Origin: Ananas comosus | Lineage: Eukaryota > Streptophyta > Magnoliopsida > Poales > Bromeliaceae | Length of the DNA: 64,000 nt | Assembly: GCF_001540865.1 (NCBI RefSeq) | Contig: NC_033635.1 | Location: 6,378,678 to 6,442,677, forward strand | Direction of reading: 5' to 3' | Part shown: positions 13,317 through 64,000 of the stretch, in pieces | How positions within the stretch are numbered: position 1 is the stretch's first letter | Layout: every line of letters begins with the position of its first letter | Notes under the pieces: generated by a model | Databases searched by the model: none | The model's input: the letters and a program-made list of their open reading frames with translations, nothing else | Told to the model about the DNA's origin: nothing | Program-made: the position numbers and the translations under genes

Positions 13317-13832
13317 CAATATTTGTCACGCCCCGGGACCGATACCAATTTGGGCCGGCCCGGGCATGTCGAACAGACGCCGAACGGACAGAGTTTTCCC
13401 TGTCCGCCCAAGGCTCATCACCTGTACATTTTCAAGTAACGAAAAGCACTAGCGGAAATATATACAAACGGCTTACACGAGGGTAAGCAATAGCCATGAG
13501 TGAAAGAAAGGAAACTAAACATCTACACAAGTACTATGATTCTCTTTTGATCACATACATTGCATTTAACTTGTACATTCATAGTTCTTTACATACTATT
13601 CATCATTTCTTTTTACATCACTTTTACTCAAAATGAAACATTACATTCTCCTTGAAATAAATATCACATTCTTTTTTCTTTACATCTCACTTCATCACAT
13701 ACAAAAGATGAAGTAGGGGAATGCTACTACAAAATGTAAAACTCGACTTGGTAGTCACTGTCTATGGCGCGATACCTTTACCGCGGTCGCTCGCCGGCTC
13801 GCTCGGTCCCGGCTCTGTGGAAATAGTGGGGT

Positions 13833-13853
13833 AAGAACTACAACGAAGTTCCC
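13833..13853 (-). other. Conserved LTR hairpin (GAACT/AGTTC)
   Basis: Stem GAACT 13835-13839 pairs with AGTTC 13847-13851. It is 18 nt upstream (minus strand) of an acceptor-like CAG at 13817-13815 and about 510 bp from the LTR 3' end. Confidence 0.6.
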
Positions 13854-15762
13854 AATAGGTTTGGCTCCAATCTCACCGACTTTCCCACTATGACTAACTC
13901 AGGCATAATAGAAAGAATAAGCAAATAAGTAGCCAACTATACGAATGCAACTAATATGCCTGAACAATGCGATCAATAAAGATGCTCAATATAACTCATG
14001 AAGAATGCATGGTCTTTGTTCTTTGTTTTTTATTCTTTGTTCTTGTTCTTTCATTCAATCTCAAGGCTAACTCGGTGGTATCGCCTCATTAACTCATCAA
14101 CTCAAAATCCATGATCGCGGTCTCTCAGCTTCCTCCTGCTAGGACTGTCCTCTGAGTAACTCAACCCAGTGATGGCAAACTCCGGAGCGCATTGCCCGAG
14201 GGGGAGCGACCACCCTCGAGCAAGAACTTATAGCGAGTATGATCAATCCTTAACTCTAAGGATATTCAGTTCAATCTGTTCCTTAACTCTAAGAAATTTA
14301 TGCACAAATGACCCTTAGCTCTAAGGTTGAATGTCATTGTGTCAATCTCAAGTTCTTTGCATTCTCTATCTTCTACCATGTCATTACACTAACTCTAGTG
14401 TTCTTTACATTCTTTACTATCGTTCATATCATACATTAACTCAAGTATTCTTTGATGCCCCACATTTAATGCTATCTCTAGCCATTGTTCTTTATGCCAC
14501 ATTTTGTTGCTAACTCTAGCAATTGTCATTCTTTGATGCCTCACATTTGCTAACTCTAGCTTTTATCATTCTTTATACCACATTTTGTTCTCTTGATGCC
14601 ACACACTAGCTCTAGTGTTCTTTACGTCAATCTTTATGCTAACTCTAACTTTCATTCTCACATTTCATTGTCCTTATGTCATATGTCACTTGTTCTTTAA
14701 CTTCATTATACTCTTATCTCTTTTTACATGCACATATAGGGTTAATAAATTCTCATTGGTTCTCAACCATCTCATGATGCACTTGAACTTACAAAATGTA
14801 AACATTCACATATTTGTAATCTCATTACCCTAACCATGCATGCAACAATTATATACATATGCTCAAGAAGTGACACATTAGATATAAAGAAAATTCCAAC
14901 AAGTTTGGAGAGCACCACCCACCTCGTAGGCTTTCTTAGGTGCTACGGTGAATTTCTCAAAATTTTTAGACTCTTAGTTCGTCACCTGCGGCAAAATGAA
15001 GCCAAATTAGGCCTTTTTGCTCATAACTTTACATAGACTTTTCGTAACGTCAATCTGAGCACACCATCGCGTCGGAAATACCCCCAATTAGGTTTCTAGA
15101 GGGTCAATTTTACTTTGAAACCCTCACAAGAAAAAGTCCCAAATTTGGGTGCCATAGCTTCACATATACCAAATCTAGCGCTTTGATCTCTTAGAAAAGT
15201 AAAAGAAAGCTTCAAATCCTCTAAAGGTTTTATAAAAACTATTCTTAGCTCAATCCAAACTCTAGTTTGGATTCTACCATGAGAGAGGTTGAAGCTCACC
15301 TCTAAGCTTCACCACATATACCCAATCTATGGTTTTGATCTCTTAAGGAAGTAAAAGAAAGCTTCAAATACTCAAAAGGTTCTACCAAAACCATTTCTAG
15401 GTCATTTGGTTCTCATTCTAGGGTTTTACCATGAAAGGGATCAAAACTTACCTCAAAGCTTTCCTTTCTTTGTACTAGAGGTGAAGGAAAGGGAGTAACT
15501 TCACTCCTTCTTCTTCTTCTCCACCTTCTTTCTCTTTTTCTTCTTCTTCTTTTCCTTTCTTTTCCTTTCTTTCCCTTTCTTTCTTCTTCTCCTTCTTGTC
15601 TTCTAGCGAGAGAAAGAGAGGAGAGAGTATGTGAGAGGGAGAGAATGAGAGGAATATCCCATAACCCCTCATAACATAACCCACATAATGCATTTTTGCA
15701 AATAAACCCCTCAACTTTCACTTTATTAAACTGCCAGAACTGGGCAGTTTTCGTGCTCGGGG

Positions 15763-15986
15763 ACCGGTCTCCCCGACATGGCACCGGTCCCAGAGAGCTC
15801 TCCCCGCCGGCAGCCACGGCCCCCGCGCAATGCAACCGGTCTCTCCCAGAGGGACCGGTCTCTCGGGGACTTGTCTCTCCTCGCAGGGACCGGTTCCCGA
15901 GAGCTGATTTTCTGGGACTTAGCCGATTTCTTAGCTTTCTCATTTCTCACGCATTCAGGGACCGGTCTCTCCCACCAGGGACCGGT
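15763..15986 (-). promoter_or_regulatory. ACCGGT palindrome array (7 sites)
   Basis: Seven cores in the U3 part of the 5' LTR, some as near-perfect GGGACCGGTCCC palindromes. One repeat unit has decayed to GGGACTTGTCTC. This is the better preserved of the element's two arrays. Confidence 0.55.
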
Positions 15987-16685
15987 CCCCGAGAGCACAA
16001 AAGCTGCAGTTTGCAGATTTTTGATTATTTAGCTCTCGAAAACCTCCCACAATGCACTTTTACTTATTTTAACACCTTCGGACTTTCCGAAGGGTACCAA
16101 TCTCGCACTTTGGTCAACTTGACTAAAGCTCGATATTCATTTTTCAAATTTTCGGTATATTACATAAACACTTGCATATGGATATTAGGATAGGTGTCAT
16201 GCCCTCGCCCCGAGGCCACTACCAATTTGGTCCGGTTCGGGCGCGGCGGACGGACGCCGAACGGACAGCACCTTGCCTGTCCGCCCAAGGCCAAACAACC
16301 TGATCAAGTACAATTAAGCGCCCAGGAATTGCTTAAATAACATACATGATCAATACGATGCACACAAGTGTAATACAGCTAAGAGCAAGAACCATAAGTG
16401 ATATACAAGTGTATAAAGAGAGATAGTCTAACTATTACAACCATTCCATAGTTACATCATTTGATTACATTACATTTTTATCTTCCAAAATGTAAATACA
16501 TATTTTTCTCCAAAATACATCATAGCTCTCCAATGCCTATCCAAAATATACATCTTCTAGTACACGAAGGTACTCTATATGCAAAAAGGAAAGCTACTAA
16601 CTACTCACTTAGGGCGCTATGCTCTTGCCGCGATCCTCGCTCGGCTCGCCCCTGTATGTACCTGTACTCCAAAACCACATGAGGT

Positions 16686-16709
16686 GAGAACTATATAAAT
16701 ATAGTTCCC
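16686..16709 (-). other. Conserved LTR hairpin (GAACTATA/TATAGTTC)
   Basis: Perfect 8-bp stem 16688-16695 with 16700-16707, loop TAAA. Acceptor-like CAG at 16664-16662, 24 nt downstream on the minus strand. Confidence 0.65.
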
Positions 16710-18268: not shown

Positions 18269-18458
18269 ACCGGTCTCCCCGACCTAGGACCGGTCCCCGA
18301 GAGCCTCAGCCTGGGTCACGCGTTCGGGAACCGGTCCTTCCCTGAGAGACCGGTTCCCGGGAGACCGGTTCCCTCTTGAGAGACCGGTTCTCGAGAGCTG
18401 GGATTTCGGGACTTAGCCAATCTTGGCTTTTCTCGCTCGGTCACGTTCGGGGACCGGT
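18269..18458 (-). promoter_or_regulatory. ACCGGT palindrome array (7 sites)
   Basis: Seven cores, including the run GAGACCGGTTCCCGGG followed at once by another AGACCGGTTCCC. Nearby GATCGGTT (18472) looks like a decayed copy. Confidence 0.55.
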
Positions 18459-19033
18459 CTCTCCCTGCCAGGGATCGGTTGCCTCAAGAATCCCCGCAAC
18501 CACCAGCCGATGGGAACGGTCCCCGAGAGCAATTTTGCTCCTGTACAGGTTTTGCACTATTCGCTCTCGTGGACTCATTTTTAATGCACTTTTGGTGACT
18601 TTGACATCTTTGGCTTTTCCAAAACTCACCAACCCGACCCTTGGTCGATTCTGGATGAAGTCTAACTCTCGTATTTCGAGAATTTACTTCCTTACAATAG
18701 GTGGATTCCCGACTGAATAATAGCCCTAGTGGATAAGGTATCCTCGAGTTGAGAGGATTGGATCATACTCACTGTCTGTTCAGAGCTTGTGGTGGTCGCT
18801 CCACACAAGCGTGCGCTTTGAAGTTTGTCACACGAGGGATAGCCTTATAGGGTCCAACTGTAACATACCACATCCCTCGTAAGTCGTGCCGAGTTCCGTC
18901 GAAACGAGCAGAACACGGAATTGAACGAGTTACAGTGGACCCTAAGTGCATTGGAGTTCATAAATGGAGCAAAAAGGGACCCGGAGAGCAAATCTGGAAA
19001 TCTGGCTAAGTCCCAGATTTTGAGCTCTCGGGG

Positions 19034-20822: not shown

Positions 20823-20843
20823 GGGAACTTCGTTGTAGTTCTC
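20823..20843 (+). other. Conserved LTR hairpin (GAACT/AGTTC)
   Basis: GAACT 20825-20829 pairs with AGTTC 20837-20841; the outer GG/CTC extend it with one G-T pair. Acceptor-like CTACAG ends at 20861, 18 nt downstream. Confidence 0.6.
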
Positions 20844-21861
20844 ACACCACTAACCCTACAGGTCCTAGCACGAGCGGGGCGGCGGAGGACCGAGGCAAGG
20901 GTTTGGCGCCGTAGGTAGCGGCCACCGGGGACTTTATGCATTTTGTAGTCATTCCCTTTTGTTATACATGTATCAACTTTATTTTGTTGATTTAGGTATG
21001 TAAAGTGAAAACAATCATGTATTTGGTGGATGACTAAATGTAAAAAGATATGATGGTTGAATGGAATGTAATAGTTTTACATTAGCTTTGTTTACTTGAA
21101 TTTGGTTTAAATGAAATCAAATATCATGTGTAATCTATATTTAGCTTAGAGCTTTCGCTTCCGTTGTTGCTTGCCCTCGTGCAAGCCTTGTATTATATTT
21201 GCAATTCTCTTGTTAATTGCCTAATTATGTGTATTGTTAGAGCCTTGGGCGGACAGGGGAGGCTCTGTCCGTTCGGCGTCTGTTGACGTGACCCGAACCC
21301 GACCAAATTGGCGGGGATTGGGGCGTGACACCAACAGACGGGTTTGCTGAGCGAGTTGAGTCTCCTTACCCATAAGATGCATGTGAGTCGTGGGCGAACC
21401 TCAGGGTTGGCCAAGGATTGGTTAAGCCAAAAGAATTGATGAACAAGTAAATAGCATTACTTCTTGGACATAGTGGCATGTTAGTTGATTACCTATCACA
21501 TTGTGCATGCATACATTGTATATGATTTCGGCATAATAGCATAGCTTTCTTACTATATCGTTACTGTTTTTACATATCTATCTATCTATCTGCTTGTGCC
21601 TACTTGGACCTAGTAGGGAGATCGGGGGAGTCGGCGGCCGAACCCACTGGGAACTATGGACTATTGTGACGCACTAGACCTTGCAAATTGTGGGGTTTGA
21701 GTGATTGGTTGTGTTCTGAGCTTTTCCAGATTTTCTGGTGGGTCGTTGAAAGTGTTCCGACCTATGGTTCGAGTCCCGAGAATTGTGGTTTAAACCTGTG
21801 TACCAAAATCTAAAAAGTTAGATTTTTGGTCAGCCTTCGGGTAGCCTTCGGCAGGCTGTGT

Positions 21862-22015
21862 ACCGGTACGGGCTTGGTGGCTGTACCGGTATGGGGTTGA
21901 TGGCTGTACCGGTACAGGCCCGCATACCGGTACACAGACGGCTTTTCGGCCAAACCCGAGGCTCGGGTTTGCATTTTCGTGGGTGGTGTACCGGTACACA
22001 ATTTCGTGTACCGGT
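21862..22015 (+). promoter_or_regulatory. TGTACCGGTACA palindrome array (6 sites)
   Basis: Group B array: six ACCGGT cores, three as the full GTACCGGTAC dyad. It ends about 55 bp before a TATA-like ACATATATATTACACC (about 22071). Each full dyad also holds two GTAC cores, the sequence recognised by plant SBP-box factors; whether they bind here is unknown. Confidence 0.6.
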
Positions 22016-23708
22016 ACACAGTGCAGATTGGGACTGTTTCGTGGAGGGGTGTTTTTGCAATTGTTGCAACACATATATATTACACCCCAGCCCCTTTAGA
22101 GGGTTTTCTTGTGCCCTAACCAGAGGAGATAAGGTGAGACTCTCCCCCTTTGATCTCTTCTCCATTTTTGATGGATTTTGGTTGGTTTTGATCTCTCCTC
22201 TCTTCTCCACCTTGTTTTTTGTTGGGTTTCCTCTATTGTTGAAGGCTTGGAGCTTGGAGAGGAGCTTGTTTGAGAGGAGATTTTCAACTCCACTTGGCTT
22301 GGAGCTTGGTTTGGGACATCTTGTGAGGTGAGTATTCATGATCTTTCTTTTAGAGCATGTTTTGGTAGTTTTCCTCTTTGGAAACCCTAGATTTTGGATT
22401 CTAGGGCTAGGATTGGGATTTTTTGATTTGAGGGCTTTGGAGCCAAATTGATGGGTTTAGAACCTTTGTTTAAGTTTGATTGGAAGGACTCTAGCTCCCA
22501 TTTAGAGATTGAGAGAGCTTCCTTCGCAATCGGTGAGTTTTCTTCAACCCTAGCCCGAATTGGTTAATGATTGTGCAATCCGTTGTTCGTTCGTTTGGGT
22601 AACACTTGTTCCTACATCCTTAGGGTACTAGGAGGCTAGTGGACACCTTCGTTCGGCGAAACGAAGAGTTCGAAAAATCGGTGGGTTTGGCTTCATGATT
22701 TGGGGGCAAAATGGCCCCTATGAGTAAAATACTTGTCTTTTTGTGAAAGTAAATGCATATTCATGCTAGATAGAATTTGTATGAATTTTGGAACGCTTAA
22801 AACCCATGCATTATGTGTCATGAGAACTTCGCTCTATGTAGTAGAGCCTTATTTGTAGTATGCATGCATGTGTTCCGGATTCTTTATTGCAACTTGAAAA
22901 TATGTCTCTTATGTGGGAAAATGACTAGAATCATGCAATCTTAAGCATAATTGTCATGCTATGACTTAGTGAGCAAAAGTGTCATAAAGGGGCACTTGAA
23001 CTAGAAAACGGTTGAACTGCAACTTAGAGACATGATGATAGGCCATTGTACATCTGCTATATTCCATGTTAGAGACATGATGACATAGAGATAGGCCATG
23101 ATGACATTTGACATATTCCATGTTTTAGACATGAGGACTTGGTACTTGAGACAGATCATTGCTTGCTTGCCATTGTGCTCATTCGCACATGCTTGTGAGG
23201 GTCGCTCCCTACAAGCCGGCACTCCGGAGATAGCCATCGCGACATATGCTCACCCGTGCGGGATTGGGCGCCGAAGTGGATTGCCGTGGGGGAGGCTCAT
23301 CCCTAGAGTGGGGATGTTCACTACCACGGGGCCATTAGGCACGGCGGAGGCCAGACAGCCTTCGGGTGGGTCTTATATGATTGGGACTTAGTGACAGAAC
23401 ATACTACGTGAACTTTAAAACTATTAAAGTGGACTTGGATTAGAATAGTAAACAATGACATCTTTACTATTTTTGCATTGAGGACATCGGGTTGGGTGCA
23501 TTTCTGTGATTATGCATGTCATACATATCCATGTACATCCATGATATAGTTGCCTTATTACTTATGCAAATCATACTAAGTAGAGACTTTATGTTATAGT
23601 AAGTTACATTTTACTTACCTTTCGCTTTACTACACTGTTAGTCACTGACCTCTTTTTATAGCTTTTGGGCCTTGTGACGCAGTTCACTGAAGTCAGTAAT
23701 TGCCCACT

Positions 23709-23731
23709 GGGAACTATTTTTAATAGTTCTC
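23709..23731 (+). other. Conserved LTR hairpin (GAACTATT/AATAGTTC)
   Basis: Perfect 8-bp stem, loop TTT. Acceptor-like TTTCTTTCAG ends at 23759, 28 nt downstream. Confidence 0.68.
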
Positions 23732-24577
23732 ACGCCCCTATTTTCGTGATTTCTTTCAGAGCCTTCTGCACCGGCGGAGGCACGGGATCGCGGCAAGGGA
23801 ATCGCATAGCTAGCTAGCGAGAAGTGGTTCTTTGCCTAGGTGGTTTACTCTTTCTTTTTGTAAATGAGAGAGAGTGAGAGATTTTGTATCCATGTATAGA
23901 GACCACCTATGTATCTACCTTTAGCACTTGTATTGAGATTTCCATTGTATTACTTTATGCCTTTATTAGTGGATTCCAGCTTTGTGTTCTTTTCTCTATT
24001 GTAGAACTTAGTATTATATTATGCTCTGATACTCCTAGATGTCCTTTATTATTGCTTCAATTATCGTTGTTTTAGACGCCTTATATGTTTTAGACGTATG
24101 GCGGGTCTGGACACGTGCCGTGCGGGCTTCTGCTGGTGTCACGCCCGGGTACCAGCGGAAGCATATCCGGTACGTGAACAGACCCGCCATACACCTGCAG
24201 TATATAAGGCGTCTACAAACAAGCAAGTCGATAGGAAGAAGATCATAGAAAATTCTAACCTGATATCAGAGCAAAGTACAAGTCAACAATACAATCAACA
24301 ATAGAGTAAAGGAGTATAGTCCAAAAATCTCAACCACAAGATGAGTATCACAACTAAAGTGACTGTCCAAAAGTACATATACATCACGGGGTATACAAAA
24401 GAATAGGTACAACGGTGGTCTATCTATACATAGGGACATCACCCTCGGCCGTAGCCCGAGTAGCAAGGTGATCGACTAGCACGCTCCTAGTAGTCCCTAG
24501 CTAGGCGCGACTCCCTTGCCACGATCCCTAGCCTCTCCTGTAAATGGCTCTGTAAAAAACAACCACCAAAAGGGCGT

Positions 24578-24600
24578 GAGAACTATTAACAATAGTTCCC
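24578..24600 (-). other. Conserved LTR hairpin (GAACTATT/AATAGTTC)
   Basis: Perfect 8-bp stem 24580-24587 with 24591-24598, loop AAC. Acceptor-like TTTTTTACAG ends at 24550 on the minus strand, 28 nt downstream. Confidence 0.68.
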
Positions 24601-28560: not shown

Positions 28561-29485
28561 ATGTACGCCACTCAGACCGAGGAGGCGGTAGCAGCCGAGG
28601 ATGTTGTTGCAGGTATCATTTTACTTGATGGCATTAGAGTTCGTGCTTTATTTGATACCGGTGCATCGCATTCATTCATAGATCGGCTGTTTGCCGAGTT
28701 GTATGGCATCCCATTGGTTTCTTTATTGCATACGGGACATGTTGTTGTACCCAACCACGTTTTGGATATTAGAGAGTATAGCCCCAGTTGCCCTATTCGG
28801 ATAGGAGATTGGATTATGCATGTAGATTTGCTAGCCTTGCGCAAGCTGGGGGATTTTGACGTGGCCTTGGGCATGGATTGGTTGACCAAGTATTATGCCA
28901 CGATTGATTGCAAAAATCGCACGGTTACTTTTAGAGAACCTGGGCAGACTGAGGTGGTATTTAGGGGATGCCGGAGTTCGCTGTTTGCGATGACGATCAG
29001 CTCGTCTCGAGCTAGGCAGCTGATCAGTAGAGGTTGTGTAGCCTATTTGGCTAGTATTGTGCTGAGGGGCGAGGATGACACCCCTAGGATTGAGGATATT
29101 CCGGTGGTGCGGGAGTTTCGAGATGTGTTTCCAGCTGAGCTACCAGGTATGCCTCCTGATAGGGAGATTGAGTTTGGGGTAGATCTCGTCCCTGGGACTA
29201 CCCTAATCTCAAAGGCGCCCTATAGGATGGCACCGGCAGAGCTGAGGGAGCTGAGGGCACAGTTGCAGGATTTGTTGGACAAGGGCTTCATTCGACCGAG
29301 CGTCTTGCCTTGGGGAGCACCAGTTTTGTTCGTCAAGAAGAAGGACGGATCGTTTCGCCTTTGTGTGGATTATCGCGAACTTAACAAAGTCACGATCAAG
29401 AACAAGTATCCGTTTCCGAGGATCGACGACTTGTTTGATCAGCTTCAGGGATCGTGTGTGTATTCCAAGATAGACTTGCAGTCTG
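28561..29485 (+). pseudogene. Protease and first RT half (first copy of the duplication)
   Basis: Protease begins near residue 12 with the intact catalytic [10 protein letters not shown] (Asp codon 28654-28656), then [20 protein letters not shown] fingers follow ([40 protein letters not shown]). The reading stops being meaningful at the single N, 29486, where the sequence jumps back to its own protease region. Apart from that join this copy has no stop. Confidence 0.85.
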
Positions 29486-30236
29486 NGACATGTTGTTGTA
29501 CCCAACCACGTTTTGGATATTAGAGAGTATAGCCCCAGTTGCCCTATTCGGATAGGAGATTGGATTATGCATGTAGATTTGCTAGCCTTGCGCAAGCTGG
29601 GGGATTTTGACGTGGCCTTGGGCATGGATTGGTTGACCAAGTATTATGCCACGATTGATTGCAAAAATCGCACGGTTACTTTTAGAGAACCTGGGCAGAC
29701 TGAGGTGGTATTTAGGGGATGCCGGAGTTCGCTGTTTGCGATGACGATCAGCTCGTCTCGAGCTAGGCAGCTGATCAGTAGAGGTTGTGTAGCCTATTTG
29801 GCTAGTATTGTGCTGAGGGGCGAGGATGACACCCCTAGGATTGAGGATATTCCGGTGGTGCGGGAGTTTCGAGATGTGTTTCCAGCTGAGCTACCAGGTA
29901 TGCCTCCTGATAGGGAGATTGAGTTTGGGGTAGATCTCGTCCCTGGGACTACCCTAATCTCAAAGGCGCCCTATAGGATGGCACCGGCAGAGCTGAGGGA
30001 GCTGAGGGCACAGTTGCAGGATTTGTTGGACAAGGGCTTCATTCGACCGAGCGTCTTGCCTTGGGGAGCACCAGTTTTGTTCGTCAAGAAGAAGGACGGA
30101 TCGTTTCGCCTTTGTGTGGATTATCGCGAACTTAACAAAGTCACGATCAAGAACAAGTATCCGTTTCCGAGGATCGACGACTTGTTTGATCAGCTTCAGG
30201 GATCGTGTGTGTATTCCAAGATAGACTTGCAGTCTG
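28736..30236 (+). repeat. Exact 750-bp tandem duplication around one N
   Basis: Bases 28736-29485 recur at 29487-30236 without any difference that I can see, and the two copies meet at a single N (29486). Real duplications in an element this decayed should differ; the single N and perfect identity suggest unmerged overlapping contig ends. Confidence 0.85.
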
Positions 30237-30466: not shown

Positions 30467-32753
30467 GAATTGTACTCCAAGTACTTCGGGAAAAGGAGCT
30501 TTATGCCAAGTTGAATAAATGTGAATTTTGGCTTCGAGAGGTAGCCTTTCTTGGACACTTGATTTCTGGATCGGGTATAGCCGTGGATCCTAAGAAGATT
30601 GAAGCAATCAAGGATTGGCCGAGACCGACGAGTGTCGCGGAGATACGGAGTTTTCTTGGATTGGCCGGTTACTACCGGAGATTTGTCGAGGGATTTGCAA
30701 GATTATCTACTCCCCTCACGAGGTTCACGCATAAAAGAGTCAAGTTCATTTGGAATGATACGTGCGAGCGAAGCTTCCGAGAGTTGAAACAAAGATTGAC
30801 TACCGCCCCGATCTTGACCCTACCAGTAGCTGGAGCAGGGTATGTGGTTTATAGTGATGCTTCACTTAATGGATTGGGCTGTGTATTGATGTAGGATGGC
30901 AAAGTGATCTCGTATGCTTCTCGCCAACTAAAGGAATATGAAAAGAACTATCCGACGCATGATTTGGAGTTGGCGGCCGTAGTGTTCGCATTGAAGCTAT
31001 GGCGCCACTATATTTATGGCGAGCGGTGTGAAGTGTACACGGATCACAAGAGCTTGAAGTACCTGTTTACTCAGAAGGAGTTGAACTTGAGGCAGCGCAG
31101 ATGGTTTGAGCTACTCAAGGATTATGATCTTACTATTCTTTACCACCCAGGCAAGGCTAATGTGGTTGCGGATGTGCTAAGTAGGAAATCGACGGAAAAC
31201 TCAGCGATGCATTTGGTTACCCAACCGCAGTTGATCGAGCAGATGATGCGGATGGAGTTAGAGGTGGTGACTCCTGACACACCCTTGAGGTTGATGACAT
31301 TGGTTGTGCAACCTACTCTTATGGATAGAATTAAAGAAAAGCAAGCTTCCGACATGGAGTTGCACAAGATTCGAGAAAAAATGGTTGATGGTTGCACCGC
31401 TGATTTCCTAGTGGACGATCGAGGGTTGATGCGTTTCCGCGGACGGATTTGTGTACCGGCGGATTTGGGAATTAAACAGGACATTCTTTAAGAAGCGCAT
31501 CGAGCGCCCTATGCTATACATCCGGGAGGCACCAAGATGTATAAGGATTTAAAGCTGCTCTATTTGTGGCCCGGAATGAAAAAGGACGTTGGCCAGTTTG
31601 TTGCTAGATGTTTAACTTGCCAACAAGTTAAAGCTGAGCACCGAGTTCCCGCAGGAAAACTTCAGAGTTTGCCTATTCCCGTGTGGAAATGGGAGAAGAT
31701 CACCATGGACTTTGTGACATGATTGCCTCGCTCACAGGCTAGGTATGATGCTATTTGGGTGTTCGTGGATAGGTTAACGAAGTCGGCGCACTTCGTACCC
31801 ATTCACACTACTTGGACCGGGGAGAAGCTCGCACAAGTGTACCTTGATAAGATTGTGCGACTTCATGGAGTGCCTACTTCGATTGTATCGGATCGAGACA
31901 CCCGCTTTGTGTCTCATTTTTGGAGGAGTTTACAGGACGCCCTAGGCACCCGACTGGATTTCAGCACTGCTTTCCACCCCCAGAATGACGGGCAGTCGGA
32001 GCGCACTATCCAGACCTTAGAGGATATGCTCCGAGCATATGTGATTGACTTCCAGGGAGGATGGTCGCAGCATCTACCTATGGCAGAGTTTGCTTATAAC
32101 AACAGTTATCAAGCAAGCATCAAGATGGCGCCATTTGAAGCACTTTATGGACGGAAGTGTAGATCACCACTTCATTGGAGTGAAGTAGGCGAGAGATTGG
32201 CTTTAGGCCCTGATGTGCTCCAGGAAGCTGAGGACAAGGTTCGAATTGCTCGGGAGCGGCTTTTAACGGCGCAGAGTAGACAGAGGAGCTACGCCGACCG
32301 ACGACGGCGAGACTTGGAGTTCCAAGTGGGAGACCATGTTTTCTTGAAGGTCTCGCCGACTAGAGGAATCAAAAGATTCGGGATTCGGGGAAAGTTGAGC
32401 CCCCGTTTCATTGGACCGTATGAGGTTTTGGAGCGTGTAGGTCCGGTAGCGTATCGACTTGCTCTACCACCGAACCTATCGGGCGTACACAACGTCTTTC
32501 ATATATCGGTCCTTCGGAGGTACATTCATGACCTAGCTCACGTTTTGGAGGCTATACCAGGGGAGCTGCGTGAGGATTTGAGCTTCGAGGAGCAACCAGT
32601 GAAGATTTTGGCTCGCGAGTTGAAGAAACTATGGAATCGGGATATTCCGTATGTGAAGGTTCTTTGGAGCAACCATGGGGAGCGGGAGGCCACGTGGGAG
32701 TAGAGAGCGCGCTGCAGGAGCGCTATCCCCATCCTTTTCAGATGGAGCCTTGA
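30463..32753 (+). pseudogene. RT thumb, RNase H, integrase and C-terminal tail of the plus Tekay element
   Basis: One frame carries RT connection ([20 protein letters not shown]), RNase H ([37 protein letters not shown]), integrase zinc finger with CLTCQQVKAEH, and the D,D,E core (FVDRLTKSAHFVPIHTTW; TSIVSDRDTRF; NDGQSERTIQTLEDML). The tail includes GPYEVLERVGPVAYRLALPP and the chromodomain-like DIPYVKVLWSNHGEREATWE. Stops at 30892 (TAG), 31489 (TAA) and 31720 (TGA), and a late frameshift at about 32700, break it; the natural end is TGA 32751-32753. Confidence 0.87.
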
Positions 32754-32796
32754 GGTATGCTTTTGCTTTCGAGTTTCGTGGACGAAACTCCTTTTT

Positions 32797-39369: not shown

Positions 39370-41422
39370 GTAACGAAAAGCACAAGCGGAAACATACAAA
39401 AACGGCTTACACGAGGGTAAGCAATAGCCATGAGTGAAAGAAAGGAACTAAACATTTACACAAGTTCTATGATTCACTTTTGATCATATACATGTATTCA
39501 TTTCATCCAACTTATACATTCACAAGTCTTTACATTTCATTACATCACTTGCATCATTTCTTTTTACATCACATTGCCTCAAAATAAAACTTTACATTCT
39601 TTTCTCTCTTTGCTTTATACATAGACATCTTCAAATATAAAAGATGGATACAGGGTAAACTACTAGCAAAAAGCAAAACCCGACTCGGGTAGTCACTGTC
39701 TATGGCGCGATACCTTTACCGCGGTCGCTCGCCAGCTCGCTCGATCCCGACTCTGTAGAAATGATGGGGTGAGAACTACAACAAAGTTTTCAGTGGGTTC
39801 GGCCCCAATCTCACCGATTTTTCCACTAGGTCTAACTCAGGCATAATAGAAAGAAAGCAGATAAGTAACCAACTATACAAATGCAACTAATATGCCTAAA
39901 CAATGCGATCAATAATGATGCTCAATATAAATTCATGAAGAATGCATGGTTCTTGTTCTTTGTTTCTTTGTTCTTTCGTTCAATCCCAAGGCTAACCCGG
40001 GGGTATCGCCTCAATAACTCACCAACTCAAAGTCCATGATCGCGGGCCCTCACCTTCCTCCCGCTAGGACCGTCCTTTGGGGAACAGCACCAACCCAATG
40101 ATGACAAACTCCGGAGCGCATCGCCCTAGGGGGAGCGACCACCCTCAGGCAAGGACTTATAGGCAAGTATGATCAATCCTTAACTCTAAGGATATTCAGT
40201 TCAATCTGTTCCTTAACTCTAAGAAATTTTGCACAAATGACCCTTAGCTCTAAGGTTGTATGTCATTGTGTCTCAATCTCATATTCTTTGCATTCTTTAC
40301 TTTGATCATGCAAATACACTAACTCTAGTGTTCTTTACATTCTTTACTTTCATTCATATCATAATACTAACTCTAGTGTCCTTTATGTTCTTTACTTTGA
40401 TTCATATCATAACACTAACTCTAGTGTTCTTTATGTTCTTTACTTGATGCTAACTCTAGCATTGTCATTCTTTATTGTCACATATTTGCTAACTCTAGCT
40501 TTTCATCATTCTTTATAGTATATTTGTTCTCTTGATGTCATACACTAGCTCTAGTGTTCTTTATATCATACGTTATGCTAAGTTTAGCCTTTCGTTCTCA
40601 ACATTTCATTGTCCTCATGTCATATGTCACTTATTCTTTAACTTTATATTGTTCTCTTCATCATACATGCATATATAGGGTTATTACAATCTCATTGGTT
40701 CTCAACCATCTCATGATGCACTTGATCTCACAAAATGCAAACATTCACATGATTATCATCTCTTTACCCTACTATGCATGCAACAACATACTCATGGATG
40801 CTCAAGAAGTGACACATTAGACATAAAAGGAATTTCAACAAGTTTGAAAAGCACCCCCCACCTCGTAGGGTTACTTTCATGCTACGATGATTTTCTTGAG
40901 ATTTTTAGACTCCTCGTTCGCTACCTCCGGCAAAACGAAGCCAAATTAGACATTTTTGCTCATAACTTTTCATAAACTTTTCGTAACGTAAATCCGAGCG
41001 CACCAACGCGTTCGTTTGGTCCCCAGTTAGGTTTCTAGAGGGTCAATTTCACTTTGAAACCCTCACAAGCAAAAGCCCCAAATTTGGGTGCCCTAGCTTC
41101 ACATATATCAAAACCTAGGGTTTGATCTCATTAGGAAGCGAAAGAAGCTTCATTATACTCTAGAGAGTCCATCTAAATCATTCTTAGCTCAATCAAAACC
41201 CTAGTTTGGGTTTCACCATGAGAGGTTGAAGTTCACCTCACAGCTTCTTCATATATACCCAATCCATGGTTTTGATCTCTTAGAGAAGCAAAAGAGAGCT
41301 TCAAATACTCAAAAGGTTCTACTAAAACCATTTCTAGGTCATTTGGTTCTCATTCTAGGGTTCTACCATGAATGGGATCAAAGCTTACCTCAAAGCTTCC
41401 CTTTCTTTGCTCCAAAGAGGAA
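39370..41422 (-). mobile_element. LTR fragment (group A family, minus strand)
   Basis: Matches 13430-15480 of the Tekay 5' LTR, from AAGTAACGAAAAGCACAAGC to CTTTCTTTGC. It includes a decayed hairpin (GAACTACAACAAAGTTTTC, about 39774-39792) and the CTCCGGAG module (40107-40142). It stops at the CACTA end at 41423, before the ACCGGT array. Confidence 0.8.
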
Positions 41423-47237: not shown

Positions 47238-47370
47238 TGAAGAGATTGCGGAACCGTGAGATTCCCTATGTGAAGAGTGCTTTGGAGCAACACGACGAGC
47301 GCGAGGCCACTGGGAGTTGGAGAGCGCACTGCGGGAGCGCTATCCCTATCTCTTTCAGATGGAGGCTTGA
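47238..47370 (+). pseudogene. Last codons of a gypsy pol (chromodomain-like tail)
   Basis: KRLRNREIPYVKSALEQHDE followed, in a shifted frame, by codons matching the Tekay end (ESALRERYP...FQMEA, stop at 47368-47370). It parallels 32620-32753 of the plus Tekay element. Confidence 0.8.
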
Positions 47371-47500
47371 AGTACTTTACTTTTTGAGTTTCGCGGACGA
47401 AAACTCCTTTTTAGGAGGGGTGAATGTAATACACTGACCTTTGCAAATTGCGAGGTTCAAGTGATTGCTTGTGTTTCGAACTTTTTCATACTTGGTGAGG

Positions 47501-50047
47501 TGTCACGCCCGGGTCGATTTTAAAAGTCTTTTTAAAACAGAGTTGCGGAAAACGTGCCATTTTTTTTTTTGAAAATACCGTCTTTCTCAACCTGGCCACG
47601 CGACGTACAGACCCGCACATACAAAGTTCCTCTGTCACTATCGGACAGAGTCTCCTTTGTATTGGCACGGCGTACCAACAGATACAACAGGATCTCAACC
47701 AAACTCTACATTTAAACCAACAACAACCAAAGCATGATATGCATTTTCATACAGCTAACAATCCTTAGAAGATGCATGCCTCTAAGCACTCCTTAGGCGC
47801 TGGATGATGTAATGCACAATACAACAAACATCCTATTTAAAAGTGCTCCCACACGGAAGCTTTTGTTTTAAACTCTAATTCATTCATTCATAAAAACCGT
47901 TCGAAACCTTTTTAAAACTGTTTCCCACACGGAAACTCTATTTGAAAACCGACTACCTCGAGGGGTAGAAAACCACGATGCATAACTACAAGAAAACCAA
48001 ATCTCCACAGAACGCAAAACCACAGATCGAAAATCCAATCTCATGTATAATAAAACATCCATAATCTCATGCATAAACGGAATCACCACATTAACATCTA
48101 ACTGAACCATTTATTAAGAAAACTACTAAGTGCGGGAAAGAAATAACCAGGGTGACGGTCGCTACTGCCGTCTAACTAGATCGTCTCTCGTCGAGCCCGA
48201 AATCCAACTCCTCGTCTCTGTAACCTGGGGGGGGGAAAGGGGGTGAGAAACCGCAACCATGGTTTTCTCAGTGGGTACGACAGAGCCACGAAGGCAAGTC
48301 GTAATCACCGAAACCAAAGGAGATAGATAAACAAGTATATAACTGTAAGCTGATATGAAATAGAACTACAGTAGCTACAACAGATAAATAGGAAGCAATA
48401 ATAAACCTTCTACTGTATAGAAAACAATGCAAAGAATGCCTCAATGTACTGAACCAGAAACTGTACCCAATCTGTGCTGCTGATCGGTTCGTAGACCTCA
48501 AGCGCTACATGTCCTAACTCAGACCGCCTGATCCATCCGCCCCCGCAGGACGACCTATCCGGATAAGTAACCTCCGATCGGTGGCCAACCGATACCGGTG
48601 TCATGAATACCCCAAGTGCCGTGACTAAGTCATGCTGGTAATGCTCAACAAAAACAAACCCGACTAAAAGCCGTGCCTAGGCCGAAGCCAACAACGAGGG
48701 CGTACAATGCCAAATGAAATAAAAGCTAGGGCGTACAACGCCGAACCGAAATAAGATGCTAGGGCGTACAACGCCGAACCTCGATCAACCAGATCGAAAC
48801 ACAACCACAAGAGAGTCGATGTGTTGCCTGACCCAAGGTCCACAGAGATACTGAAATACAAATGCAACCTGCTCTACATGTCTATCATCACTAACCCATG
48901 GCAGTCAACGAAATACGATAGCCAAATGATACCAAACACTGACATGTAGAGCTAATATACTGGAATAGAAAAACAGGAAGAAGAGGTGAAACTCTCACCG
49001 ACTACCACTCGAGAGCACCACCTGTCACTGTCGGCTCGGAACACGGAGTACGCACAAGTCTACCGGACCTAAGAAGATCCACACAAGTCAGTATCCAAAC
49101 CACTCACCCAAAGCACGAGACTCACAACCCCCACAAGGATCCCGTAATCGGTTTCCCAAAACCGATCCCGTAACTCACGGAAGTCCCGAAAACACACACG
49201 GGACGCCGTCGGGACCGCACTAAGTGTCCGAACTCACACGACTCGTACCACGAGTCACCTGCTGCCCCAACATTCCAATTTGGATTGCCCTGGCAGTGAA
49301 ACACAAGGTAACACAACAATACGGTCATCGCCGGATAATCGTACGAATCCGGGTTTCCGGAGTGTCTATTTCGACACGAAACCCTCCGTCGCTCACCCAT
49401 CATCATCGACACCACAAAATGATGATGGTGACCAGCAACAAGGCTCAGCGATGAAACCACGAAGCAAAACCAAACACCGTCGGAAAGAATCCGAACCGAA
49501 ACGCGCGTTCTTTCGGCGAATTTCGCCGAAAAACGCACCGAAATCGACTACGATTCTCGCGAAAGCTAACGGACCATGACAATCAGTCGAGCGATCATAA
49601 CAAACTCCCACACACTGCCCACAGTAGCCACGCAAAGCAGCAATCGCATAAAGAGACCTCTAATTAACATAAATAATCGTCATTTTAATGTAATTTTGAG
49701 GCGATCAAGCGGCTCGTTCACGCAAACCGAGGACTTCAAGTCCGCAGAGACACGTACTGACAGGTCTCGACGTACCGGAGTCGGTGCTCACGATCCGGAG
49801 CACAGCGGCTCGCTGTGGGAAGCGCGGGAGCAACGCCGAAGGTTCAGCGAATAGCGCGCAGTCAGGGAGATCGCGCCGAACAGAATAACCGGACACTTCT
49901 GATCCAAGGGAAGGTGAGCTTGTGATCAGCACTGACCCACGATCACCGTGCTCAACCTCCGGAGGCATCAGGACAGCCTCGGATCGCCGGGTAAGCGTGC
50001 GCAAGCCCAAATCAGCAGCCCAAACAGGCTGAAAGGAGCGCAGCGGA
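47501..50047 (-). mobile_element. LTR fragment (group C, no ACCGGT array)
   Basis: TGTCACGCCCGGGTCG at 47501 is an LTR end on the minus strand. It carries a hairpin (48245-48269) and acceptor-like CAG at 48220-48218, farther from the LTR end (about 745 bp) than in other families. It runs to about 50047, where sequence continues as a plus-strand LTR. Only an isolated ACCGGT (48592) is present. Confidence 0.65.
48245..48269 (-). other. Conserved LTR hairpin, variant stem GAGAAACC/GGTTTTCTC
   Basis: Eight base pairs with one bulged T, loop GCAACCAT. Flanked by the same GTG and CAGTGGGTA that flank the other copies, though the stem sequence differs on both arms. Confidence 0.6.
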
Positions 50048-50865
50048 TGATTGACTCGAGGCCGAGTCGGGTGGTTAGCTTGATTAGGTTAATAGAAACC
50101 TAAAGGTAAGAGCTGAGGTAATAGAAACCTTAGAGTAATGTGAATTTGAGTTGTGAACTGAGGTAATAGAAACCTTAGAGTAAAGAAATATGAGCTAAGG
50201 TACCTAAGTAAAAGTAGAATTCAAATGATCTACTAGATGTTGCATAGAGTTGAATGACTTGCATATTGCATATTGTTAGGTCTAACATGTATTTCAATTG
50301 AATATATTTGCATTGTATATTGTTGAACTAACATATTGCAGGGCCTTCTTAGACCTTTTGGTCGAGCTTTTCCCTTGGGTGGCCGTACCCACTGGGAACC
50401 ATGGAGTTGGTTCTCACCCCACGTTGTTTTGGGGTGTTTACAGGTTGTACGAGTGCGGCGCGGCGGCGCGAGGCAAGGGCGTAGCTCCGTAGATAGCGCC
50501 CTACCCAGAGACTAGAGCTAGCAGTACCCCGTCGACATAGCTTAGGGGTTAAGGAATGAAAGGAACATAATATATCAAATTTGTAATGAGTAATTTGTAA
50601 TAACTAGATTGCATTTGGATGAAAAAGAATGTAAAAAGAATTGTAATGTAAAAATATGTGAATGTGAATGTATGTAATAATATAGGATGTGTTATGTTGT
50701 TGATACCTTCCTTATGCAATCTGTTTGTTGAATACTGTTCCTGGTTGGAACCTTCGTATTGTATTGATTGCGTTGCCTTAAATGTACAGGGGAAACCCTG
50801 TCCATTCGGTGCTGTCGGCGGTGTCGCGAACCTGACCAAAGAGGCGGGGGTCGCGGGTCGTGACA
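50048..50865 (+). mobile_element. LTR 3' fragment (group C)
   Basis: Matches, in inverse, 61984-62830: GAGTCGGGTGGTTAGCTTGA, the hairpin, an acceptor-like TTTACAG (50443), and the end hairpin ACAGGG-GAAA-CCCTGT (50786-50801). It ends GCGGGTCGTGACA at 50865. Confidence 0.75.
50394..50415 (+). other. Conserved LTR hairpin, variant GAACCA/TGGTTC
   Basis: Stem 50396-50401 with 50407-50412. Compared with GAACTAT/ATAGTTC copies, U-A has become C-G on both arms. Acceptor-like CAG ends at 50443, 28 nt away. Confidence 0.68.
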
Positions 50866-53093: not shown

Positions 53094-53095
<2 letters not shown>

Positions 53096-53458: not shown

Positions 53459-53598
53459 ACCGGTTCCTGACGGGCGAGACCGGTCCCCGAGCGCGTCCAC
53501 GCGGGGAGAGACCGGTCCCGAGCGGGGAGAGACCGGTTCCCGAACGTCGGGTTTTCGAGGCAGGCTGAGAGACCGGTCCCGTGCAGGGAGAGACCGGT
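53459..53598 (+). promoter_or_regulatory. ACCGGT palindrome array (6 sites)
   Basis: Six cores in 140 bp, plus a decayed ACTGGT at the very start of the LTR piece (53418). Confidence 0.55.
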
Positions 53599-55474: not shown

Positions 55475-55497
55475 GGGAACTATAAATTATAGTTCTC
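55475..55497 (+). other. Conserved LTR hairpin (GAACTATA/TATAGTTC)
   Basis: Stem 55477-55484 with 55488-55495, loop AAT. Acceptor-like TTTCTTTCAG ends at 55525, 28 nt downstream. Confidence 0.68.
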
Positions 55498-55910
55498 GCG
55501 CCCTCTGCTTTATGTTTTCTTTCAGAGCCTTCCACGCCGGGAGAGGCTAGGGACCGTGGGAAGGGCGTTGCTTCGAGCTAGCTCTTCTGCGAGAGACGAG
55601 TGGATAGGTGGTCTACCCTCGATGTTTTTATTTTGGAGAGGTTGAGAGCTGTACCAGTGCAATAGAGACCACCCCTTTTTGTACTATTTTAGGAGATGAT
55701 ATTGTACTACTATATGTTCTACTCTTATTGTTTCAGTATACCTCTTTTACCTTGTTATAGACTATAGATCTATCTGTGCTCTGATATCTCTAGATGTAGG
55801 TTACCTTTGGTTTTATTTTCCGCTGTTGTTGTAGACACCTTATATGTGCTGACATATGGCGGGTCTGGGCACGCTACCGGGAAGGCTTCTGCCGGTCCCG
55901 GGGCGTGACA

Positions 55911-61436: not shown

Positions 61437-61460
61437 GGAAACTATTGTCTAATAGTTCTC
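61437..61460 (+). other. Conserved LTR hairpin (AACTATT/AATAGTT)
   Basis: Stem 61440-61446 with 61451-61457, loop GTCT. Acceptor-like GCTTTTACAG ends at 61487, 27 nt downstream. Confidence 0.66.
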
Positions 61461-61844
61461 ACACCCTCTTTGTTGTTGCTTTTACAGAGCCTTCCACAAC
61501 GGAAAAGGCTAAGGTTCTTGGCGAGGGGTCAGCGGCTAGCTAGAGCTTTCTCGATGTTAAATAGATGGATGATGTTCGATAGATGGAACCACTCCAGATT
61601 TTCTAGTTCTGTATTGTGTTGTTAACGAGATTCTGTAAATTTATAATTGTTCCTTCCTGTTGTATTAAGATGTCGCGTTGTTTAAGTTTCAACTTTTAAG
61701 TTTTGCTCTGATTACCTGATTAGAATTGAATGCTTTTACTATATTGATTGTAGATGCCTTGTGTATACTTGAGTTGTGGTGTACACGGCGGGTCTGTGCA
61801 CACGACTGGTGAGCTTCCGCTGAAATCCAGGGCGTGACAGAAAC

Positions 61845-61983
61845 GATACTGGGCTATTGAAAAATTATACTTGGCATTGTACTACGCTTGTACAAAGCTG
61901 AGATATTATATTTTACCAACTGAGGTATCGGTAATATGCAAAACCGACCTGGTAAAGTATATGTTGGCCAAACTTGTATTAAG
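61845..61983 (+). pseudogene. Tat-type RNase H, continuation after the solo LTR
   Basis: The frame reads YWAIEKLYLALYYACTKLRY, typical of the RNase H of gypsy elements (the E-K-x-x-L-A-x-x-Y segment), and continues to 61983, where an LTR cuts it. It joins the 58301 end once one GAAAC is discounted. Confidence 0.85.
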
Positions 61984-64000
61984 GTGTCACGCCCCGCGAC
62001 CAACCGCCAATTTGGACCGAGTCGCGGCGCCGCTAACAGACCGCCGAACGGACAGAGTTACCTCTGTACGTCCAAGGCGTCGCAATCCAAACAACAATGA
62101 ATGTTCCAACTAGGAACGGATATCAATCTAGATTGCATAAGGAAGTATCAAATACATAAAACTTCTAGCTATTACAAGCATTCATTTCATTCGCATTTTA
62201 CATCACAGTTTCCTTTCTTTTACAATAGACTTCCAAATACAATTTAGGTTATTACAACACTAGTTGTACATGATTGATACATTTTTGTTTTCCTTATCTT
62301 CTAGTCCCCTAAGCTAGACTGTCTCAGGGTACTGCTACCTCGGTCTCTGTGGTCGGGCGCTATCTACGGAGCTACGCCCTTGCCTCGCGCCGCCGCGCCG
62401 CTCACACGGGTACCTGAAAACACCCCGAAACAACGTGGGGTGAGAACCAACTCCATGGTTCCCAGTGGGAACGGCCACCCAAGGAAAAAGCTCGACCGAT
62501 AGGTCCGAGGAGGCACTGCAACATGTTAGTTCAACAATATACAACAGATATATATATATATATTCAATTGAAATACATGCCGTGTCTCACGATATGCGAT
62601 ATGGAAATCATGCAACTCTATGCCACATCTAGTAGATCATTTGATTCTACATTTAATTGGCTACTCTTAGCTCATATCTTTACTCTAAGGTTTCTATTAT
62701 CTTAGGATCTCAACTCAGTCCACTAGCTTCTAAGGTTTCTATTATCTTAGCTCAAGCCTCTATCTCTAGCCCATGAGGGTTCCTCTACCCTATCGAAGCT
62801 AACCACCCGACTCGGCTTCTAGTCAATCATCTGCGGATAGTCCGCGCACTGGCTGCTTGTCAGCCTACCGCTCTCTCTGACTCAGCCTCATAGCGGCGAA
62901 GTCGTCGCACACCCTGAACACGGCTCGAGTCGCTTGACTTAGCCATCTGGCGGCGATCACGTTGCTCTTACCCAGCGTGAGCTCGAGGCATGACATTCCG
63001 TCTGGGGGCGAACGTATCGCACCTCACCCAACAACGGTCCATGTCAGACCCAGCCACCTGGAGGCACCCGCATTGTTCTTACCCAGCATGGATTCAGTCT
63101 ATCCTGGTGGTCTGATCCTCAATCAGCTTAACCATTCGGCGGCGAAATCGTCCGACAAACGCCACGACAATGGTTCAAGCCCCGGGCGGTGATCTCCATG
63201 TGATCGCCCCCAATCCTCCCTCGGTACCAAGCTCGGCGACGAAGTCATCGCACAAACGCCCTAGCCTCTACCAGGGTCATCACAAGTCCTGGGATTCCGG
63301 AATCTACTTTCCACAGGTCGAGGGTCCATAGCCAACCCTATACTGTCGACCTAGCTCATCCTAGTGGCTATACCACTATACCCATCAACCTAGGTTTCAA
63401 CACTCTAGGTTCTACGTCCATGTCACTTAACCTAGTTACAATTGCTAGGTTCTTGTCCTCTTAGCCTAGATGTCTATTTCTAGGTTTACTAGTTCGACCT
63501 AGGTTTACTAACACTAAGTTCGATGCCACACCTAGACTTGTTCGACTCTAGGTTCACTTGCTCAACCTATGTTCTTTAACACTAGGTTAGGTGCCACTTG
63601 ATCTAGTTGACATCCTAGTTGTCCAATCGAGTACCTCATATCAATCAACTCTACTCAAACTAGAGTTATCATCTAGTTTACATGCATATATATATAGCAT
63701 TATTCATATGCATCTACTTAGCATCTTCATCTATGCACTATTATTAACATGCATTCTTTACTTTTGCTAACATTATTTACATGTCATGCTCATCATGCTT
63801 GCTACTTAGCATTTTACTCTATGCATTATCATTCATCATGCATTACCTGTTCTTGTCTACATGCACATGCATCAACATGAGATTACGTTGCTTAGACATA
63901 AAGGGCGACCTAGTCGCTTCGGTAAGCACAACCCACCTTAGTTAGCTTTCCGATTGCTTGTCGACACTTGCAATAAGCCTCCCGCGGCACTCGGCACCCG
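61984..64000 (-). mobile_element. LTR (group C) running off the window
   Basis: TGTCACGCCCCGCGACC at 61984 is a minus-strand LTR end. It has an end hairpin ACAGAG-TTAC-CTCTGT (62052-62067), the acceptor-like CAG (62415-62413) and hairpin, and matches 50048-50865 in inverse. The upstream part (62770-64000) holds short tandem-like CTAGGTT repeats (63380-63600). The 5' end is beyond 64000. Confidence 0.78.
62442..62463 (-). other. Conserved LTR hairpin, variant GAACCA/TGGTTC
   Basis: Stem 62444-62449 with 62456-62461; same C-G replacement as at 50394. Acceptor-like TTTTCAG ends at 62413 on the minus strand. Confidence 0.64.

What the first reader, a model, noticed from the sequence alone, without database searches (positions are those of the whole stretch)
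13324..62463. A covarying hairpin sits 18-28 nt before a splice-acceptor-like site in ten LTR copies
Seen: in LTRs at 13833-, 16686-, 20823+, 23709+, 24578-, 48245-, 50394+, 55475+, 61437+ and 62442-, the block CCCACTGGGAAC...GTTCTCAC forms a short hairpin. Stem sequence changes on both arms together: GAACTATT/AATAGTTC, GAACTATA/TATAGTTC, GAACCA/TGGTTC, GAGAAACC/GGTTTTCTC. A pyrimidine-rich CAG (TTTCTTTCAG, GCTTTTACAG, TTTACAG) follows at 18-28 nt. Nine of ten lie about 400-510 bp from the LTR 3' end. Paired substitution with constant position indicates selection on RNA structure. Inference: it may control branch-point or acceptor choice of a leader intron. I know of no description of such an element.
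Basis: partly seen in the sequence, partly recalled or inferred. Interest (0 to 1): 0.86.

Follow-up and report, generated by a model that had tools for sequence, protein, structure and literature searches.

The report
Hairpin-gated Gag splice acceptor in LTRs
In a plant genome that is probably a pineapple relative, the long terminal repeats of a group of jumping genes carry a conserved RNA hairpin just before a splice-acceptor-like site; the short coding exon behind that site matches the tail of a pineapple Gag (coat) protein, so the hairpin likely tunes how much Gag-only message is made, which no RNA data here have tested.

Summary
The hairpin is real and covaries. All ten copies are present; an eleventh (39786-) was missed and a twelfth (21643+) is split by a nested LTR. 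In my hand alignment 100 of 110 stem cells pair; tree simulations without pairing reach this in 2 of 2000 runs.

New: the CAG opens a coding exon. In 10 of 11 copies it reads 2 nt, 15-17 codons, stop; 69% of differences (7 codons, 10 copies) fall on third positions. So the CAG is likely a true 3' splice site; CUCAC at the stem's foot matches a branch point 17-27 nt upstream.

Protein searches scored on this tail alone returned two pineapple records: P0001 (LTR-derived, other phase) and P0003, a Gag ending in the tail, joined just before the protease. There both Gag-Pol elements of the window read GCA G|GTAT, a donor in the phase the tail demands.

Best explanation: splicing from the Gag/protease border to the 3' LTR makes Gag-only mRNA, and the hairpin tunes this acceptor so that enough RNA stays unspliced. 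Two hairpins compete for one GGG; in 6 of 11 copies both folds lie within 2 kcal/mol.

No transcript was seen; the window's own genome could not be searched.

The parts
13833..13853 (-). hairpin B, copy c13848 (7-bp stem)
13762..13817 (-). acceptor CAG (13815-13817) and terminal exon ..PGPSEPASDRGKGIAP*
39700..39755 (-). acceptor CAG and terminal exon ..SGSSELASDRGKGIAP*
20823..20843 (+). hairpin B, copy c20817; hairpin A arm CCTAGTGGG starts at 20783
20859..20914 (+). acceptor CAG and terminal exon ..PSTSGAAEDRGKGLAP*
16686..16709 (-). hairpin B, copy c16704 (10-bp stem); hairpin A arm CCTAGTGGG starts at 16749
16609..16664 (-). acceptor CAG and terminal exon ..TYRGEPSEDRGKSIAP*
23709..23731 (+). 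hairpin B, copy c23703, in the 5' LTR of element A
23757..23809 (+). acceptor CAG and terminal exon ..PSAPAEARDRGKGIA*
24578..24600 (-). hairpin B, copy c24595; hairpin A arm starts at 24640
24497..24552 (-). acceptor CAG and terminal exon ..PFTGEARDRGKGVAPS*
48245..48269 (-). hairpin B, copy c48264, most divergent, compensated stem with one bulge
48172..48227 (-). acceptor CAG and terminal exon, in phase, but its peptide YRDEELDFGLDERRSS* lacks the RGKG motif
50394..50415 (+). hairpin B, copy c50388
50441..50492 (+). acceptor CAG and terminal exon; the one copy whose phase is off by one base
55475..55497 (+). hairpin B, copy c55469; branch-like A is G here; hairpin A arm starts at 55436
55523..55581 (+). 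acceptor CAG and terminal exon ..PSTPGEARDRGKGVASS*, matching the C-terminus of pineapple P0003 (90% over 20 residues, two of them read from before the exon)
61437..61460 (+). hairpin B, copy c61431; hairpin A arm starts at 61397
61485..61543 (+). acceptor CAG and terminal exon ..PSTTEKAKVLGEGSAAS* (degenerate motif)
62442..62463 (-). hairpin B, copy c62458
62364..62416 (-). acceptor CAG and terminal exon ..TRVSGAAARGKGVAP*
21643..21664 (+). 12th copy: 5' half of the hairpin, cut by the LTR that starts at 21665
28603..28618 (+). element A Gag/protease border GTTGTTGCAG|GTATCA: candidate donor after base 28612, one base into the codon
11652..11667 (-). element B Gag/protease border GTCGTGGCAG|GTATAA: candidate donor after base 11658, same phase

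Best explanation
The hairpin stands at the 3' end of what is likely an intron that would run from the Gag/protease border of a Ty3/gypsy retrotransposon to the CAG in its 3' LTR, and it is predicted to tune how often that acceptor is used. Shown: the stem covaries; the CAG is followed by a coding exon of constant phase with a conserved tail and stop (10 of 11 copies in phase); CUCAC at the foot of the stem matches the branch-point consensus (recalled) at a normal distance; both Gag-Pol elements of the window have CAG|GTAT at the Gag/protease border in the matching phase; a pineapple protein record is Gag joined at that border to this tail. Inferred: splicing joins the two, skipping Pol, and yields a Gag-only mRNA, while unspliced RNA makes Gag-Pol and is the genome. 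Inferred and least certain: the GGG of CACUGGGAAC pairs either upstream (hairpin A, leaving CUCAC free for U2 snRNA) or downstream (hairpin B, covering it), so the structure holds splicing at an intermediate level.
For: Covariation beyond shuffles, slid stems and tree simulation. Terminal exon: same phase in 10 of 11 copies, 15-17 codons then a stop; over 7 codons in 10 copies (48264 has no such motif and is left out, 50388 is read in its own phase), pair differences at codon positions 1/2/3 are 50/41/199, column-shuffle P 2e-4. In the exon's frame the reading opens only at +8 to +47 in 4 of 11 copies and at varying places upstream in the others, so the shared coding stretch starts at the CAG. 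CAG is the first AG after the branch-like base in 10 of 11 copies (P 2.4e-5 if the copies were independent, which they are not); branch-like A in 10 of 11, 17-27 nt away. P0003 (Ananas comosus var. bracteatus, 439 aa) was the only protein with E<=10 in a search scored on the tails alone (E 1.6 among 1868 candidates, so not significant by itself) and proved to be a Gag: Retrotrans_gag 1.4e-14, zinc knuckle 4.1e-05. Its residues 116-412 match the Gag of window element B (58%, E 2.5e-108) and 11-416 that of element A (43%, 4.9e-85), while 420-439 and 420-437 match the window terminal exons at 55519 and 23753 (6.6e-6, 6.7e-4). Its junction ..HVLA|E is the phase that one search had already demanded; both window elements read GCA G|GTAT there while the two valine codons before and the isoleucine codon after differ at third positions. 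A-form and B-form within 2 kcal/mol in 6 of 11 copies.
Against: No RNA data. P0003 may be a software gene model or come from an element with a deletion; its DNA was not seen. The other record found with the tail, P0001, has L before the tail, so it must join it in another phase, to LTR-derived sequence. The donor is weak by my matrix: (threshold 3.5) does not list it, and lists other sites, some of them in the same phase. No window element keeps both its Gag donor and its own 3' LTR acceptor: the 3' LTR matches of A and B end before the hairpin and the model finds no copy there. B-form is favoured by 2.4-5.9 kcal/mol in 5 of 11 copies, so the two-state switch is not universal; A-form only had to leave CUC unpaired and the middle G paired, so in 13848, 39786 and 50388 that fold is not hairpin A. 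Folding is not unusually stable in 7 of 11. c55469 has G for the branch A; c50388 is out of phase; c48264 lacks RGKG; c61431 has it degenerate; c16704 has an earlier AG. Two of five covariation measures are at chance, and the outer eight pairs without 48264 are weak.
Confidence: 0.6

Rival explanations
1. Leader intron: the acceptor is used in the 5' LTR, joining a leader exon inside the LTR to sequence upstream of gag, and the hairpin regulates that.
For: Donor-like AG|GTRAG-type sites at -1315 to -1716 in 7 of 11 copies, among 13 sites of score 5.0 or more in the upstream stretches of the 11 copies (over the whole window 0.22 sites of score 5.2 or more per kb per strand); pineapple records P0001 and P0002 resemble, by eye, the LTR reading frame that ends at such a site (21822-22331), and P0001 continues into the tail.
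Against: In those 7 copies the frame that could continue into the tail holds 0 to 31 codons before the site and no ATG; a leader would not explain a conserved C-terminus and stop.
Confidence: 0.2
2. The acceptor and Gag tail are real, but the hairpin serves another step of the RNA (packaging, dimerisation, export or 3'-end formation) and its closeness to the CAG is incidental.
For: A second hairpin with some paired changes and an invariant CUCCGGAG palindrome lies 319-605 nt upstream in 9 of 11 copies (the hairpin in 8 of these 9), so the region may be one structured RNA domain present only in unspliced RNA.
Against: The branch-like CUCAC is part of the foot of the 3' arm in 11 of 11 copies (one-base variants in 13848 and 55469) and the spacing to CAG stays within 17-27 nt.
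Confidence: 0.25
3. Common descent only: the stems are shared ancestry without present function.
For: Only about nine lineages; restricted to the outer 8 pairs without c48264 the excess is weak (27 and 56 of 1000).
Against: Copies of different lineages that align at all are mostly 60-72% identical around the site and the full stem exceeds simulation; double changes need more than one event at several pairs.
Confidence: 0.07
4. A donor just behind the Pol stop codon (TGA G|GTATGC, TAA G|GTATGT) is spliced to the LTR CAG, removing a 3'-UTR intron.
For: Present in two elements in the same phase; a third has GTACTT; B's site scores 6.8 by my matrix, better than the Gag donor.
Against: The stop precedes the junction, so the conserved tail would not be translated without readthrough; P0003 joins the tail to Gag.
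Confidence: 0.1

Closest known systems
BARE1 facultative splicing (barley Ty1/copia; PMC3735527, passages read)
   Same: One-ORF element; a facultative intron yields an RNA that encodes Gag only.
   Different: Copia superfamily; 104-nt intron inside the ORF that causes a frameshift; no LTR acceptor and no RNA structure in the passages read.
EVD/EVADE shGAG (Arabidopsis Ty1/copia; PMC8892269, passages read)
   Same: Spliced short Gag mRNA beside unspliced full-length RNA; the isoforms differ in localisation and translation.
   Different: Copia; splicing coupled to premature cleavage and polyadenylation close to the intron; no LTR-encoded Gag tail or hairpin in the passages read.
Drosophila copia spliced Gag mRNA (details recalled; that copia itself splices is mentioned)
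   Same: Intron skips Pol to give Gag only.
   Different: Other superfamily and host; no LTR-encoded, hairpin-fronted tail known to me.
Ogre intron (plant Ty3/gypsy; PMC6317226, passages read)
   Same: Plant Ty3/gypsy element with partial splicing that sets polyprotein expression.
   Different: There splicing enables translation of the whole polyprotein; here it would skip Pol; [quoted passage not shown]
Retroviral weak 3' splice sites with local RNA structure, e.g. in HIV-1 and RSV (recalled; one search listed no paper on this)
   Same: Structure or a weak branch site keeps splicing incomplete so that genomic RNA survives.
   Different: Unrelated elements; not in the LTR.

Membership tests
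U2-type 3' splice site | Branch-point match 15-40 nt before AG, pyrimidine-rich tract, AG-free interval | tested here: met
   Branch-like A in 10 of 11, 17-27 nt; tract 55-100% pyrimidine; first AG in 10 of 11; consensus recalled
U2-type 3' splice site | Coding exon begins at the AG | tested here: met
   Constant phase in 10 of 11, third-position variation
U2-type 3' splice site | Spliced RNA | not testable with these tools
   No RNA data held
Spliced Gag-only mRNA (copia/BARE/EVD strategy) | Donor at the end of Gag, in phase with the acceptor exon, stop soon after | tested here: met
   GCA G|GTAT in both window elements, though weak by my matrix; tail and stop
Spliced Gag-only mRNA (copia/BARE/EVD strategy) | Protein or transcript with that junction | tested here: inconclusive
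   P0003 has it at protein level, as a database record of unknown support
Spliced Gag-only mRNA (copia/BARE/EVD strategy) | Ty1/copia element | tested here: not met
   Gag hits Retrotrans_gag and, below its cut-off, Ty3_capsid; integrase-type stretch with SH3_Tf2-1 at the end of Pol; so it works like it but is not a member
Ty3/gypsy chromovirus, Tekay/Del clade | Chromodomain at the integrase C-terminus | tested here: inconclusive
   No Chromo hit on two short pieces that end at frame breaks; the resemblance of LTR end and primer-binding site is recalled
Known RNA family (Rfam 15) | Match at gathering score | tested here: not met
   0 matches; ten sub-threshold hits, none at the hairpins
Two-state RNA switch | Two mutually exclusive helices of similar stability, conserved | tested here: inconclusive
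   Within 2 kcal/mol in 6 of 11, B-form by 2.4-5.9 in 5 of 11; at least 8 of 9 hairpin A pairs in 5 of 11

The most novel reading that the evidence does not exclude
The LTR of these Ty3/gypsy elements encodes the C-terminus of Gag, and a two-state RNA switch at its branch site sets the Gag to Gag-Pol ratio of a one-ORF element: hairpin A frees the branch site and permits splicing to Gag-only mRNA, hairpin B covers it and keeps the genome unspliced.
Probability: 0.3. Interest if true: 0.87.

Novelty: new variant of a known kind. Interest (0 to 1): 0.68.

Why it matters
Most plant LTR retrotransposon groups encode the polyprotein in a single ORF (PMC6317226, passage read), and in the papers seen here a way to make extra Gag is shown experimentally for few elements (BARE1, EVD). 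An intron from Gag into the LTR would be an answer for a Ty3/gypsy group, would give a function to part of a very long LTR, and would make solo LTRs portable terminal exons with a structured acceptor. The hairpin makes the control step directly testable in a small reporter.

Tried and rejected
Rfam: nothing at gathering score. Collections that might hold plant elements: IMG/VR by pattern (0) and by Gag and Pol proteins (no confirmed relative). Coding exons upstream inside the LTR: a translated comparison and a donor scan gave LTR donors but no frame that leads into the tail consistently; the LTR-exon gene idea was kept only as a rival. Reading through the hairpin without splicing: rejected, the exon's frame opens only at +8 to +47 in 4 of 11 copies and at varying places in the others. 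The 'pol stop + donor' idea: kept as a weak rival. P0002, found with the LTR part of P0001, does not carry the tail. Hairpin A shows at least 8 of 9 pairs with CCCACTGGG (or its equivalent) in 5 of 11 copies, so I do not claim it for all. Literature: ten searches listed no paper whose title or abstract start describes this hairpin or Gag-to-LTR splicing in Tekay-like elements; subscription journals are mostly absent from that library.


Full report
What was checked. The window is plant DNA made of nested LTR retrotransposons of Ty3/gypsy type. An eleventh complete copy lies at 39771-39791 (-) and a twelfth at 21643+ is split by an LTR starting at 21665. A covariance model built from the eleven finds these eleven with E below 3e-7; its six further hits up to E 5 are weak reverse-strand echoes of five of the copies and the split copy.

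Is the pairing selected? On the MAFFT alignment 88.2% of 110 cells pair, against 83.0% when 3' letters are shuffled (4 of 500) and 46-54% when the arm is slid; double-change cells are 8 (1 of 500), but two other measures do not exceed shuffles. MAFFT misplaces one copy (48264); aligned by hand with one bulge, 100 of 110 cells pair, and simulation on a tree of the flanks with column-specific rates reaches this in 2 of 2000 and the double changes in 0 of 2000. Without that copy: 5 and 3 of 1000; without it and with the outer eight pairs only: 27 and 56 of 1000. One node of the tree has low support (0.229). So the case is good but rests on few lineages.

What lies behind the CAG. In 10 of 11 copies the CAG is followed by two bases, 15-17 codons and a stop; the eleventh (50388) is off by one base. 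RGKG(I/V/L)A stands close to the stop in 8 of 11 copies; 16704 has RGKSIA, 61431 a degenerate LGEGSA, 48264 nothing alike. Differences among the ten copies with a recognisable motif (50388 read in its own phase) over seven codons fall 50/41/199 on codon positions 1/2/3. This is a coding signature, and because the frame upstream of the CAG opens at varying places, the shared exon starts at the CAG. The exon before the junction must supply one base of a codon.

Branch site. The foot of the 3' arm reads CUCAC (CUUAC in 13848, CUCGC in 55469), a match to the plant branch-point consensus (recalled), 17-27 nt before the G of CAG; in 10 of 11 the CAG is the first AG after it.

Where the exon is joined. 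A search of 5.8 billion proteins scored only on the tails, with window peptides as length filler, found one protein below E 10 in each of two length ranges: P0001 (E 3.5) and P0003 (E 1.6), both from Ananas comosus var. bracteatus. Neither E-value is significant alone. P0003 is a Gag: Retrotrans_gag 1.4e-14 and a zinc knuckle, 58% identical to the Gag of window element B over residues 116-412 and 43% to that of A over 11-416, while its last 20 residues match window terminal exons. It ends ..EERHVLA|EPSTPGEARDRGKGIASS. The corresponding place in both window elements reads GCA G|GTATCA and GCA G|GTATAA: a CAG|GTAT donor, one base into the codon, as the exon requires. E in P0003 would be G from Gag plus AG from the exon. 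By my donor matrix this site is weak and was not in the list. P0001 has L before the tail, so it joins the tail to LTR-derived sequence in another phase; the records are not all of one kind.

Mechanism. I infer that splicing from the Gag/protease border to the acceptor in the 3' LTR makes Gag-only mRNA; for element A the intron would be about 6.3 kb if its 3' LTR were intact (offset of the 5' LTR acceptor applied to the 3' LTR start at 32809). In the window no element keeps both ends in cis. For the hairpin: 5' of hairpin B lies hairpin A (CCUAGUGGG..CCCACUGGG in its best copies). Both use the same GGG. In B-form the CUC of the branch site is paired, in A-form it is free. Constrained folding gives A-minus-B differences of 0.1, -0.1, -0.1, -1.6, -1.3 and -1.9 kcal/mol in six copies and 2.4-5.9 in favour of B-form in five; the constraint for A-form was loose, so in 13848, 39786 and 50388 that fold is not hairpin A. 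I propose that this keeps the acceptor at intermediate strength. This last step is the least secure.

Known relatives. Gag-only mRNA by splicing is shown for BARE1 and EVD (passages of PMC3735527 and PMC8892269); Ogre uses splicing to allow the whole polyprotein (passage of PMC6317226); C. elegans Cer1 encodes a nuclear protein from a spliced RNA (passage of PMC12786077). A long-read survey of sunflower retrotransposon transcripts (passages of PMC9784723) mentions Tekay but, in the passages found, no splicing of it. I found no description of an LTR-encoded Gag tail or of this hairpin in ten searches.

Verdict. Real, structured, and more interesting than reported: the hairpin fronts a coding exon that very likely belongs to Gag. 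The splicing itself and the hairpin's control of it remain untested.

Noticed in passing
CTCCGGAG at 14180, 17090, 20496, 23222, 25022, 39083, 40109, 46471, 49957, 54903, 60826: A second conserved block 319-605 nt upstream of the hairpin in 9 of 11 copies: a hairpin capped GGUCGCUCC (exact at 7 of the 11 palindrome sites, one-base variants at 3, absent at 49957) with some paired changes, then the invariant palindrome CTCCGGAG, 11 sites against 0.57 expected; could be a dimerisation or packaging element of the unspliced RNA. Its covariation was not tested against controls.
   Followed up: partly
32751-32760 (+), 8276-8267 (-), 47368-47377 (+): The Pol stop codon is followed by one base and then GTATGC, GTATGT or GTACTT, donor-like and in the phase of the LTR tail, then an inverted repeat and the polypurine tract.
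   Followed up: partly
about 1.3-1.7 kb upstream of the hairpin in 7 of 11 copies, e.g. 22328 (+): Donor-like AG|GTRAG-type sites inside the LTR; pineapple records P0001 and P0002 resemble, by eye, LTR sequence just upstream of such a site.
   Followed up: partly
21643-21665: Element A is inserted into the loop of a hairpin copy, in line with the title of PMC6911290 (seen in a search listing) that LTR retrotransposons often target palindromes.
   Followed up: no
28736-29485 and 29487-30236: A perfect 750-base duplication around a single N at 29486, which looks like an assembly artefact inside gag-pol.
   Followed up: no
e.g. 7834-8032, 15763-15981, 18269-18453, 21862-22010, 37764-37909, 45103-45309, 53459-53593: Clusters of the palindrome ACCGGT (73 in the window) in several LTRs; function unknown.
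   Followed up: no
gag of element A, from 28162 (+): The Gag stretch EARDKGKAKRPA resembles the LTR tail EARDRGKGIA; may be chance or a duplicated peptide.
   Followed up: no
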